Shown: in pieces, positions 2,137 through 33,810 of the stretch | Layout: each line of letters opens with the position of its first letter | How positions within the stretch are numbered: position 1 is the first letter of the stretch | Source: Bacteroidia bacterium | GTDB taxonomy: Bacteria; Bacteroidota; Bacteroidia; Flavobacteriales_E; Vicingaceae | NCBI GenBank assembly: GCA_030429925.1 | Contig: JAUIGQ010000011.1 | Span: 1 to 37,416 of the forward strand | Length of the DNA: 37,416 nt | Direction of reading: 5' to 3' | The notes under the pieces: generated by a model | Seen by the model: the letters and a program-made list of their open reading frames with translations, nothing else | The model's database searches: none | Told to the model about the DNA's origin: nothing | Translations under genes and position numbers: made by a program

Positions 2137-3009
2137 ATGCTGCTAAAGATTAGAATACTATTTCTTCGTCTGTATTTCAACAGTATTGGCTTGTTAAACA
2201 AAGATAGATCGGCTGATAAGCTGATCCATTTATTCACTACACCAAGAGCTAGGGTTAGCAGAAAAAAAGAACATGAGATCCTCGACAGATCCCGAAAAAC
2301 ACATTTAAAGTTTGATGGAAAAGAGGTTTGCTTGTATGAATGGGGACAAGGGGAAAGAGTTGCAATGTTATTTCACGGATGGGAAAGCAATGCAGGTAGC
2401 CTTGGAGCTTACGTTGAGCCTTTGGTTTCATTAGGCTACCATGTATTGGCCTATGATAGTCTGGCTCACGGGAAAAGTGAAGGAAAGCAGGCCAATATGA
2501 TCGTCTTTAAAGAGATTGCAAGAAAGATCATTCAAGAAAAGGGTATTCCAGAAATAGCTATTGGACATTCATTAGGAGCCAATGTGATCCTATTACTTGC
2601 TTCTGAAGAAAAACTGCAGATCCCAAAGGTTGTCTTGATCAGTCCATTCAATCAGATGAAAGCTATCTTCTTAGGGTTTAGGTCGATCTTAAAGATCCCT
2701 GAAAGCATCTATTCTGTAATGCTAGACAAGGCTAGCAAAAGATTCAATTACAATATAAGAGAAATGGAATTTGGAAAGGTTGGTGCAAATTCCCCTTTGA
2801 ACTCGGTGCTGATCATGCATGACAAGAATGACAAGATCACCCCTTTTAGTCATTCAGCTAATATGTCAAAAAGATGGGGACTAGCAGAGCTAAAGCCAAT
2901 TGAAGGAAGCGGACATTATAAGATCCTATGGAATGAATCTGCTCTTGATACAGCCTTAAATTTCATAAAAGAGGAAACCGATTCTAACATTCAAACGTTA
3001 GTAAAATAA
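2137..3009 (+). CDS. Alpha/beta hydrolase
   Basis: The 290-residue product is a serine hydrolase of the alpha/beta fold, likely an esterase or lipase-like enzyme. The oxyanion strand motif is MLFHGWESNAGS (about 77-88), the nucleophile elbow is GHSLGAN with Ser145, the acid is most likely Asp232 in HDKNDKITP, and the base is His260 in GSGHYKI. The N-terminal 50 residues are basic and partly hydrophobic, without a clear signal-peptide cleavage site. It is divergent from the MarR gene with a 124-bp gap, a layout often seen when the regulator controls the enzyme. No TAnnTTTG box is evident in the gap. The substrate cannot be told from sequence. Confidence 0.85.
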   Translation: MLLKIRILFLRLYFNSIGLLNKDRSADKLIHLFTTPRARVSRKKEHEILDRSRKTHLKFDGKEVCLYEWGQGERVAMLFHGWESNAGSLGAYVEPLVSLGYHVLAYDSLAHGKSEGKQANMIVFKEIARKIIQEKGIPEIAIGHSLGANVILLLASEEKLQIPKVVLISPFNQMKAIFLGFRSILKIPESIYSVMLDKASKRFNYNIREMEFGKVGANSPLNSVLIMHDKNDKITPFSHSANMSKRWGLAELKPIEGSGHYKILWNESALDTALNFIKEETDSNIQTLVK

Positions 3010-3065
3010 ATAGACTTTATCTCGGGTCTTTGCTTTCCCATTTATTTTAGCACAAAGCTTTCAAA

Positions 3066-3773
3066 ATGAATAGATTGAACAAGAGCCTTCCTCCATCAAT
3101 CACCAATCTTATAATAGGATTGACACTTTTGACACTGCTTTCCATTCTTAGCTCATCTGACCATAAGCTAAGTAATTACACTTCTATATACAATCAACTG
3201 GAAGGCGATTCTAAACCTGAATTCAAATTATTCGAGAAAGCATATTTGGGCTATATAGATCTTAAATTAAGTGGCTTCCTTCATCCTGAAAAAGACATTC
3301 TCACTATCATCGACTTTAGACTTTCATCCAAGGAAAAGAGAATGTGGGTAATAGATCTTAAGGAAAAAGAAATTGTACACAATGTGCATGTAGCCCATGG
3401 AAAGAACAGTGGTGAAGAATACGCTACTTACTTTTCAAATACGCCAAATTCATTACAGAGTAGTCTAGGCTTCTATTTGACCGGAGAGACCTATATTGGA
3501 AAGAATGGACTCTCGTTAAAATTAAAAGGATTGGAAAGAGGATTCAACTCCAATGCCTACAAGAGATACATTGTATTGCACGGGGCAGAATACGCCGACA
3601 AGGACTATATTAAGGAACATGGAATATTAGGTAACAGTGAAGGTTGTCCTGCTGTGCCTATGGAAGTGCACAAAGAGATCATTGATCTGACTAAAGGAGG
3701 AACCATCCTCTTGATCTATTACCCGGATATAGCTTATTTGGAAGAGTCCACCTATATGATGGAGATCTTTTAA
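3066..3773 (+). CDS. Murein L,D-transpeptidase catalytic domain protein (YkuD_2)
   Basis: This belongs to the YkuD_2 branch (PF13645) of L,D-transpeptidase-like proteins, which are expected to act on peptidoglycan peptide stems in the periplasm. A hydrophobic stretch at about residues 14-30 acts as signal peptide or anchor. The catalytic core has VAHGKNSGEEYATYFSN, LKGLERGFNSNAYKR, His172 in IVLHGAEYAD and the nucleophile Cys194 in NSEGCPAVP, so the His/Cys pair is intact. The 235-residue length suits a protein with only this domain. It follows the alpha/beta hydrolase by 56 bp in the same direction. Its stop codon overlaps that of the convergent phosphohexomutase gene in the sequence TTAA at 3770-3773. 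Confidence 0.85.
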   Translation: MNRLNKSLPPSITNLIIGLTLLTLLSILSSSDHKLSNYTSIYNQLEGDSKPEFKLFEKAYLGYIDLKLSGFLHPEKDILTIIDFRLSSKEKRMWVIDLKEKEIVHNVHVAHGKNSGEEYATYFSNTPNSLQSSLGFYLTGETYIGKNGLSLKLKGLERGFNSNAYKRYIVLHGAEYADKDYIKEHGILGNSEGCPAVPMEVHKEIIDLTKGGTILLIYYPDIAYLEESTYMMEIF

Positions 3774-28985: not shown

Positions 28986-30266
28986 CTAATTACTTCCCTC
29001 AAACTCTCTAATGGTCTTTCCAATAATGGAGACACAATCCATTAATTGCTCTTCAGTCATGATCAAAGGTGGAGCAAATCGGATGATATTGCCGTGGGTT
29101 GGCTTGGCCAACAGTCCATTTTCCTTCAGAGCCACACAAATATCCCAAGCGGTGGAGCTGTCTTCTGAATCGTTGATCACAATTGCATTTAACAAGCCCT
29201 TTCCTCTTACCAATTTCACTAAGTCCGAAGAATCAACGATCTTCTGCATTTCCGATCTGAAGAGTTCCCCCATTCTCTGAGCATTGTTAGCGAGATCTTC
29301 ATCTTCAACAACACCCAATGCCGCCATGGCTACTTTTGCCGCAATTGGATTTCCTCCGAACGTAGACCCGTGCTGTCCGGGTTGGATCACATTCATCACC
29401 TCATCATTGGCCAAGATCGCACTTACCGGATAGGCACCTCCTGAGATGGCTTTTCCCAAGACGATAATGTCGGGCTTAAAGCCTGCCTTGCTTTGGCATT
29501 TTGCTCCTTCGCATGAACATCCCTTGCAAACGGCTAAGAGCTTTCCGGTTCTGGCAATTCCGGTCTGTACTTCATCGGCGATAAAAAGCACTCCACTCTC
29601 CTGACACATTTTTGCCGCATTGGCTATATAATCTTCATCCGGAACAAAAACTCCGGCCTCTCCCTGAATGGGCTCTACCAACATTCCGGCTACATTGTCT
29701 TGCTTCAAAGCCTCCTCTAAAGCATCTAGGTCGTTGTATGGAATACGAATAAATCCTGGGGTGTATGGACCAAAATTATCCCTTGCATTGTCATCATTTG
29801 AGAATGAGATAATGGTAGTTGTTCTTCCGTGGAAATTCCCATCGCAAACAATGATCTTGGCAGCACTCTCAGGAATCCCCTTCTTCTCATAAGCCCACTT
29901 CCTGCAAACTTTGATTGCGGTTTCCACCGCTTCTGCTCCTGAATTCATCGGAAGCACTTTGTCGTAATCGAAGTATTCAGTCACATACTTTTCAAACTCT
30001 CCTAAAACACTATTGTAAAATGCTCTGGAGGTTAAAGTAAGCTTCTTGGCTTGCTCGATCATGGCATTGATGATCCTTGGGTGACAATGTCCTTGGTTCA
30101 AAGCAGAATAGGCACTGAGGAAATCGTAGTACTTCTTTCCTTCAACATCCCATACATAAACTCCTTCACCTCTGTCCAATACAACCGGTAATGGATGATA
30201 GTTATGCGCTCCATACTTATCTTCTAAAGCAATTGCTTCTTCTGAGGTCAATTTTGTATCTATCAT
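28986..30266 (-). CDS. rocD: Ornithine aminotransferase with cysteine-rich insert
   Basis: This PLP enzyme converts ornithine and 2-oxoglutarate to glutamate semialdehyde and glutamate. The 426 residues follow the eukaryotic-type OAT closely: [29 protein letters not shown], the PLP pocket [10 protein letters not shown] and FIADEVQTG (Asp231), the PLP-binding Lys272 in VLGKAISGG, and [11 protein letters not shown]. Between RTGKLLAV and FKPDIIV there is an insert with four cysteines (247, 250, 252, 257; C-x2-C-x-C-x4-C) that most OAT lack. Comparable inserts occur in related Bacteroidota OAT as far as I recall. The -7 box TACCTTTG is at 30290-30297. Together with the arginase at 14580 it completes an arginine degradation route. 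Confidence 0.95.
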
Positions 30267-30312: not shown

Positions 30313-31749
30313 ATGACGAAGACAATGAAGGCTACGGACCTGCTTGAAAATAAGAGCAGTAGATTAAAGTGGCTCATCCTCATTTTTGGCTTTCTGATCT
30401 ATGCCAATACACTCAACCATGAGTTTGCATTGGATGATTATTCAGTCATTTTAGAGCACGCTCATGTGCAAGCCGGGATTGATGGAATTTCGGAGTTGCT
30501 CACAACCAATTATCGAAATGGACAGCAAGGTTTCAACGACGGACTATATCGTCCCTTGAGTCTGGTAACCTTTGCCATTGAGAAAAGCTGGTTCAACAGC
30601 AAGCCCACCATCTCTCACTTGATCAATGTATTGCTCTATGGATTCGGGGGGTTCTTTCTCTTTCTTTCTCTTCAAAGAATACTCAAACAGGAGATCCTCT
30701 TGATTCCCTTTGCCATATGCATGCTGTTCCTTGCACATCCCTTGCACACAGAGATCGTGGCCAATATCAAAGGTAGGGATGAGTTGCTGGCCTTCTTTGG
30801 ATTTGCACTCACCCTCTATTCCTTTTTGAGGATAAAAGAACATAAGGGCTTTTTAATTCTAGGTATACTGTCTTTCATTCTAGCACTCTTGTCCAAAGAG
30901 AATGCAGTGATCTTTGCCTTCTTCTTACCCGGAATCATGCTATTAGACCGAGAGAAGAACCTAAAGGATGTTCAATTGCATTTATTGATCCTGCTCCCAA
31001 TGGTGATCCTCTTCGTACTTTGGAGAAACCACATTATTGGAAGCATGGAGAATGCTGTTGACCCGGGCAACTTTGGCCTCCTGAATAATCCTATAGCAGC
31101 AACGGAGGATGCATCTCTTCGATGGGGATCTACATTCGCATTGCAATGGACCTTTCTCTCCAAACTTTTCTATCCTGTTCATTTGATCCATGATTATTCT
31201 TACAATCAGATCCCTTTAGTAAGACTACTCTCCCTAACTTCCCTCTTTGGTATCCTAGCTTATCTTGCCTTGATCATAGCAAGTTTTCTTGGGATCCTTA
31301 AAAAGAACAAATGGGGAATCATCTCTATTCTTTACCTGCTTTCTATTGGTGTGGCTTCTCAAATTCTTCTTCCCATTGGAATACAGTTTGCCGAGCGAAT
31401 GCTTTTTATGGCAGTACTCCCCTTCACTATCGCCTTGATCTTTTTGCTGAAGCATATATTTCAGGCTAAAAAGGACTACCTCTCCTTAAAGCAACAAAAG
31501 AACCTCTTGGCTATCTTCTTAGGATGCTTGATCATTTATGGTGGGAAGACCTTCAATAGAAATGCCGATTGGAAGAACAATTTCAGTTTATACAGCGCCG
31601 ATATCGATCATGCCTCCAATTCTGCAAGGGCCAATTACAACTATGGAAGCACCCTAACTGATCGCGCAGACCAGATCAACAACGCCAATGAAAAAAGCAT
31701 GCTGCTGAGGAACTCTATCAATTATCTCAGCAAAGCGGTAGCAATTTAG
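30313..31749 (+). CDS. TMTC-like membrane protein, N-terminal fragment before an in-frame TAG
   Basis: The first 478 codons of a gene that continues in the same frame after a TAG at 31747-31749. The product has about ten hydrophobic segments and the layout of TMTC/DUF1736 proteins, which are related to GT-C fold glycosyltransferases. An acidic pair lies in the first loop (FALDDYSV, Asp41/Asp42), DGLYRPLSLVTFAIE follows, and the loop NIKGRDELLAFFGF and LLSKENAVIF are typical. The end (ARANYNYGSTLTDRAD to LSKAVAI) is the first helices of a TPR domain. As it stands the protein would lack its TPR tail. It is divergent from OAT. Function, perhaps protein O-glycosylation, is inference from distant relatives. 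Confidence 0.8.
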   Translation: MTKTMKATDLLENKSSRLKWLILIFGFLIYANTLNHEFALDDYSVILEHAHVQAGIDGISELLTTNYRNGQQGFNDGLYRPLSLVTFAIEKSWFNSKPTISHLINVLLYGFGGFFLFLSLQRILKQEILLIPFAICMLFLAHPLHTEIVANIKGRDELLAFFGFALTLYSFLRIKEHKGFLILGILSFILALLSKENAVIFAFFLPGIMLLDREKNLKDVQLHLLILLPMVILFVLWRNHIIGSMENAVDPGNFGLLNNPIAATEDASLRWGSTFALQWTFLSKLFYPVHLIHDYSYNQIPLVRLLSLTSLFGILAYLALIIASFLGILKKNKWGIISILYLLSIGVASQILLPIGIQFAERMLFMAVLPFTIALIFLLKHIFQAKKDYLSLKQQKNLLAIFLGCLIIYGGKTFNRNADWKNNFSLYSADIDHASNSARANYNYGSTLTDRADQINNANEKSMLLRNSINYLSKAVAI

Positions 31750-31899
31750 CCTGATTATCTGGATGCTTGGAACAATTTAGGCATCACCTATAAAAAGCAG
31801 GGAAATTTTGCAGCTGCAGTAAATGTCTACAAACAAAACATCCAAAGAGATCCCAACTACAGCAAAAACTATTATAATCTGGCTACGGCTTATTATCAA

Positions 31900-32355
31900 A
31901 TGAAGGACTTCAGGAATGCTATTGAAAGTATGGCGGAATATACCTCTAGAATTCCCAACTCTCCTGATGCCTATATGCTCATGGCTCAAGCCGCAGGAAA
32001 TATTCAAAGTTTTGGCGAGGCTATCAGTTTTTTAAATGCCTACTTGCAATACCGACCTAATGATCCTAACGGCTTCAATATGTTGGGAATGGCCTATGGT
32101 TCACTGAACCAGTTTGCAAAGGCCAATGCCTCCTTTGAAAAAGCCCTGGCTATTGAACCAAACAAGGCCGATATCCTTTTTAACAAAGCCATCAATTACA
32201 ACCGACAAGGGGATATTGGCAATGAATTCAAAAGCCTGAGACGCCTTTTGGAAATTCAACCCAATCACCAGAATGCATTGAAGCAAATGATCTTGATCCT
32301 AGAGTCTCAGGGAAGAATGGAAGAAGCAGCAAATTATAGGAATAGACTCCAATAG
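31900..32355 (+). CDS. TPR-repeat C-terminal fragment of the interrupted TMTC-like gene
   Basis: The in-frame continuation after the TAG at 31747. The first available ATG is at 31900, giving 151 residues; the frame itself is open from 31750. It holds about four to five tetratricopeptide repeats (DAYMLMAQAAGNIQSFGEAIS, GFNMLGMAYGSLNQFAKAN, ILFNKAINYNRQGDIGNEF), with one more before the ATG. No promoter or ribosome-binding site precedes 31900, so independent translation is doubtful. Best read as the separated tail of the membrane protein. Confidence 0.6.
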   Translation: MKDFRNAIESMAEYTSRIPNSPDAYMLMAQAAGNIQSFGEAISFLNAYLQYRPNDPNGFNMLGMAYGSLNQFAKANASFEKALAIEPNKADILFNKAINYNRQGDIGNEFKSLRRLLEIQPNHQNALKQMILILESQGRMEEAANYRNRLQ

Positions 32356-32382: not shown

Positions 32383-33810
32383 ATGGGAAGAAGGAGAAGA
32401 AAAAATATTGTCTACGAAGAAGTTGAGATCCTAGAAACGGCAGCAGAAGGGAAATCCTTGGCTCGAATTGAGGACAAAGTTCTATTTGTTCCGCAAACTG
32501 TTCCGGGCGACATTGTAGATGTTCAGATATCAAGAAAAAGGAAGAGATATCTAGAAGGAAGGGTTCTGAAATTCCATAAATACTCAGATCAAAGAGTAGA
32601 TGCTTTTTGCCAGCATTTTGGAACTTGCGGTGGATGTAAATGGCAATTCCTTCCCTATGAGGGACAGCTAGCTAACAAGCAAAAATGGGTAAAGGATTCT
32701 CTGGAAAGGATCGGTAAGATCCAGGGCTTAGAATACAGAGATATCAAAGGATCTGAAAAGCAAACCTTCTACAGAAACAAGCTGGAATTCACTTTTTCCA
32801 ACAAGGCTTGGATGACCCAAGAGCAGATTGACAGTGGTGAACCCATTGACAGAACCAACGCATTGGGCTTCCACATTCCGGGTAGGTTCGATAAGATATT
32901 AGACATTGACAAATGTTGGCTGCAAGGTGATCCTTCGAATGAGGTTAGGCTATGGGTAAAGACTTATGCCGAAAAGAACGAGCTCAGCTTTTTCGACCTG
33001 AGGGAGCAAGAAGGCTTTCTAAGAAATTTGATCATTAGAACCAGCAGCAATAGTGAAGTAATGGTGATCTTCTCTTTTGCTCATGAAGACCTTGATACAA
33101 GGGAAAAGCTTTTGAATGAGTTCAAAGCTGCTTTTCCAAACATTACTTCCATCATGTATGTGACCAATGAAAAGAGAAACGATACCATTCAAGATCAGGA
33201 GATCATCTGCTTCTCAGGTCGCGACCACATCTTCGAAGAAATGAAAAGTTTCAAAGGCGATGGGAAGGTTCAATTCAAGATCGGTCCTAAATCCTTTTAT
33301 CAAACCAATTCTGAGCAAGCGGAAGAACTGTATCGATTGGCTGTTGAGCTAGCCGACATTCAAGAGAATGACCTGGTCTATGATCTCTATACAGGAACAG
33401 GAACCATTGCCAACTATGTAGCCGGAATGGCCAAGAAAGTGGTCGGGATCGAATATGTGGAGGATGCCATCATTGATGCCAGATTCAATTCGGAATTGAA
33501 CAACATTCACAATACGGTATTCTACGCCGGCGATATGAAAGATGTCTTCAGCAAGGAGCTGATCGAAAAGGAAGGGAAAGCCGATGTGATCATTACTGAT
33601 CCGCCAAGGGCGGGAATGCACACTGATGTGGTGCAACAGATTCTGGAAAGTGAGGCGGAAAAAGTGGTCTACATCAGTTGCAATCCGGCTACTCAGGCCA
33701 GAGATTTGGAGCTGATGAAAGAGAAGTACGAGGCGATCATAGCACAACCGGTAGATATGTTTCCTCACACTCATCATGTGGAGAATATTGTCCTCCTAAA
33801 AAAGAAATAG
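32383..33810 (+). CDS. rlmD: 23S rRNA (uracil-1939 C5)-methyltransferase RlmD
   Basis: A TrmA/RlmD family RNA m5U methyltransferase of 475 residues. An N-terminal TRAM domain (about 8-65) is followed by an iron-sulfur cluster site, Cys76, Cys82, Cys85 (CQHFGTCGGCKW) and Cys178 (DIDKCW). The SAM domain has YDLYTGTGTIANYVAG, GIEYVEDAI, ITDPPRAG and the nucleophile Cys433 in VYISCNPATQARDL; the final base region HTHHVENIVLL is intact. Whether it is the 1939-specific RlmD or a related 23S/tRNA enzyme is not certain from sequence. The TPMT-like gene starts immediately after its stop. Confidence 0.9.
   Translation: MGRRRRKNIVYEEVEILETAAEGKSLARIEDKVLFVPQTVPGDIVDVQISRKRKRYLEGRVLKFHKYSDQRVDAFCQHFGTCGGCKWQFLPYEGQLANKQKWVKDSLERIGKIQGLEYRDIKGSEKQTFYRNKLEFTFSNKAWMTQEQIDSGEPIDRTNALGFHIPGRFDKILDIDKCWLQGDPSNEVRLWVKTYAEKNELSFFDLREQEGFLRNLIIRTSSNSEVMVIFSFAHEDLDTREKLLNEFKAAFPNITSIMYVTNEKRNDTIQDQEIICFSGRDHIFEEMKSFKGDGKVQFKIGPKSFYQTNSEQAEELYRLAVELADIQENDLVYDLYTGTGTIANYVAGMAKKVVGIEYVEDAIIDARFNSELNNIHNTVFYAGDMKDVFSKELIEKEGKADVIITDPPRAGMHTDVVQQILESEAEKVVYISCNPATQARDLELMKEKYEAIIAQPVDMFPHTHHVENIVLLKKK

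What the first reader, a model, noticed from the sequence alone, without database searches (positions are those of the whole stretch)
30313..32355. One in-frame TAG splits an otherwise intact TMTC-like membrane/TPR gene
Seen directly: the frame from 30313 is open to 32355 except for TAG at 31747-31749, and the protein on both sides fits one architecture (membrane half, then TPR half). The stop sits exactly at the variable residue before the conserved proline of a TPR (AVAI-stop-PDYLDAW). No other decay is visible. Alternatives are a recent nonsense mutation, phase-variable or strain-specific loss, an assembly error, or programmed read-through. TAG is a normal stop for many genes here, so code reassignment is unlikely.
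Basis: partly seen in the sequence, partly recalled or inferred. Interest (0 to 1): 0.72.

Follow-up and report, generated by a model that had tools for sequence, protein, structure and literature searches.

The report
Glycosyltransferase-like gene broken by one stop
A dispensable membrane-protein gene in a draft genome of an uncultured relative of Flavobacteriales carries a single premature stop where its relatives encode tyrosine; this is most likely an ordinary recent loss-of-function mutation in a gene that related species have also lost.

Summary
In detail: the frame 30313-32352 is open except for TAG at 31747-31749 (residue 479 of 680). The gene is a GT-C-like membrane domain followed by TPRs (TMTC-like). 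Nine orthologues from nine other genomes all encode tyrosine (TAT or TAC) at that codon; none has a stop, and eight are single uninterrupted genes. So the stop arose in this lineage only, by one third-position change. The sequence after the stop has evolved no faster than that before it and has no second lesion, so the lesion is young. The gene is dispensable: only 8 of 46 family genomes hold it, usually between rocD and rlmD; it is cleanly missing between those two genes in at least five related species and frameshifted in a sixth. TAG is a normal stop in this genome, no suppressor tRNA was found, and there is no recoding signal. Best explanation: a recent nonsense mutation in an accessory gene prone to loss, leaving a truncated membrane protein without its TPR arm. 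An assembly or consensus error is the main rival and needs raw reads. Programmed read-through is unlikely. Interest is low.

The parts
30313..32355 (+). TMTC-like gene (GT-C-like membrane domain + TPR repeats), interrupted
   Evidence: one frame, 56-58% identical over full length to the intact gene of the same-genus genome G001.
30313..31746 (+). Membrane (GT-C-like) half, 478 aa: product expected if TAG terminates; keeps DD (res. 41-42), YRP (79-81) and KE (195-196) motifs, loses TPRs
   Evidence: invariant columns; best fold matches are GT-C enzymes PglB, OST, DPY19; E 0.02-0.3, TM about 0.4.
31747..31749 (+). Premature in-frame TAG; TAT/TAC (Tyr) in 9 of 9 orthologues; between the last helix of the first TPR and the following Pro
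   Evidence: in the model of the intact orthologue a helix ends at residue 472 and the next starts at 477, with Tyr473 between.
31750..32352 (+). TPR half, 201 codons, open and coding-like, no second lesion
   Evidence: (TPR_8 E 5e-27).
31900..32355 (+). ORF from the first ATG after the stop; would start inside the TPR array; no relative encodes it as a separate gene
28986..30266 (-). Class-III aminotransferase (rocD-like), conserved left neighbour
32383..33810 (+). TRAM + RNA m5U methyltransferase (rlmD-like), conserved right neighbour

Best explanation
A recent nonsense mutation. One third-position change turned a conserved tyrosine codon (TAT or TAC) into TAG in this lineage only. Translation is expected to stop at residue 478, giving the GT-C-type membrane domain without its C-terminal TPR arm, so a truncated and probably non-functional or reduced-function protein. 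The gene is an accessory one, with several paralogues in the same genome, and it is patchily present or damaged in this family, so the lesion is tolerated. Shown: the sequence, the tyrosine in all orthologues, the single origin, the synteny, and absence or damage in relatives. Inferred: that the base is real and not an error, that termination there is effective, and that the truncated protein has lost function.
For: The codon is TAT/TAC in 9 of 9 orthologues and a stop in none. Those in G001, G002, G015, G040, G010, G019 and G025 are intact single ORFs. The gene is at the same place, rocD | gene | rlmD, in seven relatives, so this is the positional orthologue. Tip branch of this copy: 0.40 before and 0.42 after the stop, with tree totals of 6.28 and 6.29, and Tajima counts balanced, so there is no long decay. 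Neutral simulation: absence of a second stop is compatible with up to about 0.1-0.15 substitutions per site since the lesion. Dispensability: orthologue in only 8 of 46 family genomes. rocD and rlmD are about 100 bp apart with no gene between them in G021, G030, G033, G026 and G012, all of one genus, and about 140 bp apart in G003. The sixth species of that genus, G036, has the gene with a frameshift near residue 534. Paralogues exist in the same genome. Prior from the literature: in-frame stops in bacterial genes are widespread and mostly short-lived (PMC7918605).
Against: No raw reads or second genome of the same species were available, so a consensus error is not excluded. The nearest relative is only 56-58% identical, so dN/dS on the short branch could not be computed. 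The intact downstream frame is also what read-through would give.
Confidence: 0.8

Rival explanations
1. Assembly or consensus error, or a minor strain variant taken into the consensus of a metagenome-assembled genome: the real gene is intact in most cells.
For: The genome is a draft in 193 contigs, 93% complete. Nothing else is wrong with the gene. The orthologue in another fragmented genome, G036, also has one isolated lesion.
Against: Substitution errors that make a stop should be rare, and no other split gene was clear in 377 kb of the same genome. The gene is one that relatives lack or carry damaged, which favours a real lesion.
Confidence: 0.13
2. Programmed or tolerated read-through of TAG that makes a small amount of the full-length membrane-TPR protein, and mostly the membrane half.
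For: The downstream frame is intact and evolving at a normal rate. The literature argues that many in-frame stops in bacteria are under purifying selection (PMC7918605).
Against: The TAG is not conserved: 9 of 9 orthologues have a sense codon. No stable structure after the codon (z -0.1 to -1.1) and no Rfam element in the window. No suppressor anticodon among 28 tRNAs (the tRNA-Tyr gene itself is missing from the assembly). TAG ends many genes here, ftsK and rlmD among them.
Confidence: 0.05
3. Functional split: membrane half and TPR half now made as two proteins, the second from ATG 31900.
For: An in-frame ATG opens a 151-codon ORF.
Against: About 50 codons of TPR sequence would be lost. Every intact orthologue is one gene. 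The TPR part would have no signal or membrane anchor.
Confidence: 0.02

Closest known systems
Recent bacterial pseudogenes / in-frame nonsense substitutions (for example the survey by Belinky et al. 2021, PMC7918605)
   Same: One in-frame stop in an otherwise intact gene, lineage-specific, no accelerated decay yet.
   Different: Here shown in one genome only; population frequency and dN/dS unknown.
TMTC family, protein O-mannosyltransferases (Pfam PF08409; GT-C/PMT clan; PMC7801869)
   Same: N-terminal multi-helix membrane domain with DD, YRP and KE motifs, weak DUF1736 match, C-terminal TPRs.
   Different: Bacterial; DUF1736 score just under the curated cut-off for this protein (26 against 27 bits); activity not tested; this copy lacks the TPR part if TAG terminates.

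Membership tests
Nonsense-mutated (pseudo)gene | Orthologues have a sense codon where this copy has a stop | tested here: met
   Tyr TAT/TAC in 9 of 9 orthologues.
Nonsense-mutated (pseudo)gene | Base confirmed in reads or in a second isolate | not testable with these tools
   No reads and no genome of the same species were at hand.
Nonsense-mutated (pseudo)gene | Relaxed constraint after the lesion (expected only in old pseudogenes, not strictly defining) | tested here: inconclusive
   Tip branch 0.40 (before) and 0.42 (after): no relaxation seen; fits a lesion too young to show decay, but also a frame still in use.
Programmed stop-codon read-through | Stop conserved at the same codon in relatives | tested here: not met
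   No stop in any of 9 orthologues.
Programmed stop-codon read-through | Suppressor tRNA or recoding signal | tested here: inconclusive
   No CTA anticodon among 28 tRNAs, no structure or Rfam element; but tRNA-Tyr and some others are missing from the draft genome.
TAG code reassignment | TAG rare or absent as a true stop, frequent inside genes | tested here: not met
   TAG ends 40 of 125 long ORFs, ftsK and rlmD of this window among the genes that end in TAG, and no other clear in-frame TAG was seen in 377 kb.
TMTC-like GT-C/PMT glycosyltransferase | DUF1736 segment (loop TM7-TM8) | tested here: inconclusive
   26 bits against a cut-off of 27 here; 7 of 9 alignment members match at E <= 0.001.
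TMTC-like GT-C/PMT glycosyltransferase | Acidic DD motif in the first outer loop, RP and K-E motifs | tested here: met
   D41 D42, Y79 R80 P81, K195 E196 invariant in 9 sequences, compared with the motifs in PMC7801869.
TMTC-like GT-C/PMT glycosyltransferase | GT-C fold followed by TPR superhelix | tested here: met
   Membrane half: best matches PglB, OST, DPY19 and ALG12, moderate scores. TPR half: consensus TPR proteins.
TMTC-like GT-C/PMT glycosyltransferase | Mannosyl transfer to protein | not testable with these tools
   Needs biochemistry.

The most novel reading that the evidence does not exclude
In this species TAG at residue 479 is a leaky switch: most product is a TPR-less membrane enzyme and a little read-through gives the full protein, so the stop sets the ratio of two forms.
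Probability: 0.04. Interest if true: 0.45.

Novelty: new member of a known kind. Interest (0 to 1): 0.08.

Why it matters
It matters little beyond annotation. It is a clean example of a gene caught early in its loss: intact in some relatives, stopped here, frameshifted in a species of another genus, and absent from the same place in that genus's other species. It also shows that an intact downstream frame alone should not be taken as a sign of recoding.

Tried and rejected
A first, stricter scan for split genes missed the target itself, so thresholds were relaxed. Stops reported for paralogues (C163 in this genome, and loci in G015, G008, G003 and G036) looked at first like a recurrent pattern; tblastn showed none of them lies at the membrane-TPR junction, and the one in C163 falls at query residue 618, near the end of the gene. 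Read-through structure, Rfam elements and suppressor tRNAs: nothing found. NCBIfam gave only generic TPR matches, below the equivalog cut-offs. Searches for papers on the bacterial members found only the human TMTC analysis.

Full report
Observation. The frame from ATG 30313 is open for 478 codons, has TAG at 31747-31749, and continues for 201 codons to TAG 32353-32355. No other stop or frameshift is present. The first possible start after the stop is ATG 31900, 51 codons on. The window is one contig of a draft genome of 2.6 Mb in 193 contigs, 93% complete.

What the gene is. The part after the stop is a TPR array. The part before has a weak match to the DUF1736 segment of TMTC proteins (26 bits, cut-off 27), and 7 of 9 members of the orthologue alignment match it. 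Residues that are motifs in human TMTCs according to PMC7801869, the DD pair in the first outer loop, YRP and KE, are invariant here. A predicted model of the 478-residue part (pLDDT 82) has as best solved matches the GT-C enzymes PglB, OST, DPY19 and ALG12, with modest scores (E 0.02 or worse, TM about 0.4). The model of the intact orthologue from the same genus (pLDDT 83) places the tyrosine in the short turn after the last helix of the first TPR, before the next repeat. So it is a TMTC-like GT-C plus TPR protein; a mannosyl-transfer function is only an inference from the family.

What the relatives show. Nine orthologues (about 36-58% identical) from the same genus, other genera of the family, Salibacter and one more Bacteroidota genome were read at the codon: TAT or TAC, tyrosine, in all nine. 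None has a stop there. The gene lies between a rocD-like and an rlmD-like gene in seven of them, so the comparison is between positional orthologues. The TAG therefore most simply arose in this lineage by one third-position change.

Age and constraint. On a fixed tree the tip branch of this copy is 0.40 for the part before the stop and 0.42 for the part after, against tree totals of 6.28 and 6.29; relative-rate counts against the same-genus copy are balanced. A simulation of neutral substitution gives a probability below about 0.05 of no further stop once 0.15 substitutions per site have accumulated. The lesion is thus young compared with the split from the nearest relative held, or the frame is still used. 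These data cannot separate the two; the absence of the stop in all relatives and the dispensability of the gene favour the first.

Dispensability. Only 8 of 46 genomes of the family hold the orthologue at E <= 1e-110. In five species of one genus rocD and rlmD lie about 100 bp apart with no gene between them, and about 140 bp apart in a further species, G003. The only other species of that genus examined (G036) has the gene in that place, but with a frameshift about 55 codons after the site of the present stop. This genome also holds several paralogues. The picture is recurrent loss of an accessory gene.

Read-through and code. TAG ends 40 of 125 long ORFs in a 377 kb sample, and ftsK and rlmD in this window end in TAG. 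No other gene clearly split by an in-frame stop was seen in that sample. None of 28 tRNAs found has a CTA anticodon; the tRNA-Tyr gene was not found at all, so this test is incomplete. RNA folding around the codon is unremarkable and no Rfam family matches the window. Programmed read-through has no positive support.

Error. Raw reads were not available. A base error in a metagenome consensus would look the same. I give it about 0.13, a judgement, not a computed figure.

Place in what is known. [quoted passage not shown] This case fits that description. It is an ordinary recent nonsense mutation, of low interest, in an accessory gene.

Noticed in passing
L007 (G036:C150), about residue 534 of the orthologue: The orthologue in G036 has an independent single frameshift in its TPR half; the other five species of its genus that were examined lack the gene at this place.
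   Followed up: yes
L124-L127, L129 (G021, G030, G033, G026, G012): Empty site: rocD and rlmD are about 100 bp apart where this genome has the TMTC-like gene.
   Followed up: yes
L130 (G008), about 2902-3620: About 720 bp between rlmD and rocD that match neither the TMTC-like gene nor the neighbours; content not examined.
   Followed up: no
L050 (G012:C1) and L047 (G030:C46): Paralogues of the TMTC-like gene with internal stops: seven stops reported in G012, and one stop early in the gene (query residue 97) in G030.
   Followed up: partly
G000, L058 (C154 end): No tRNA-Tyr gene among the 28 tRNAs found; a tRNA-Thr lies at a contig end, so a tRNA cluster is probably cut by the assembly.
   Followed up: partly
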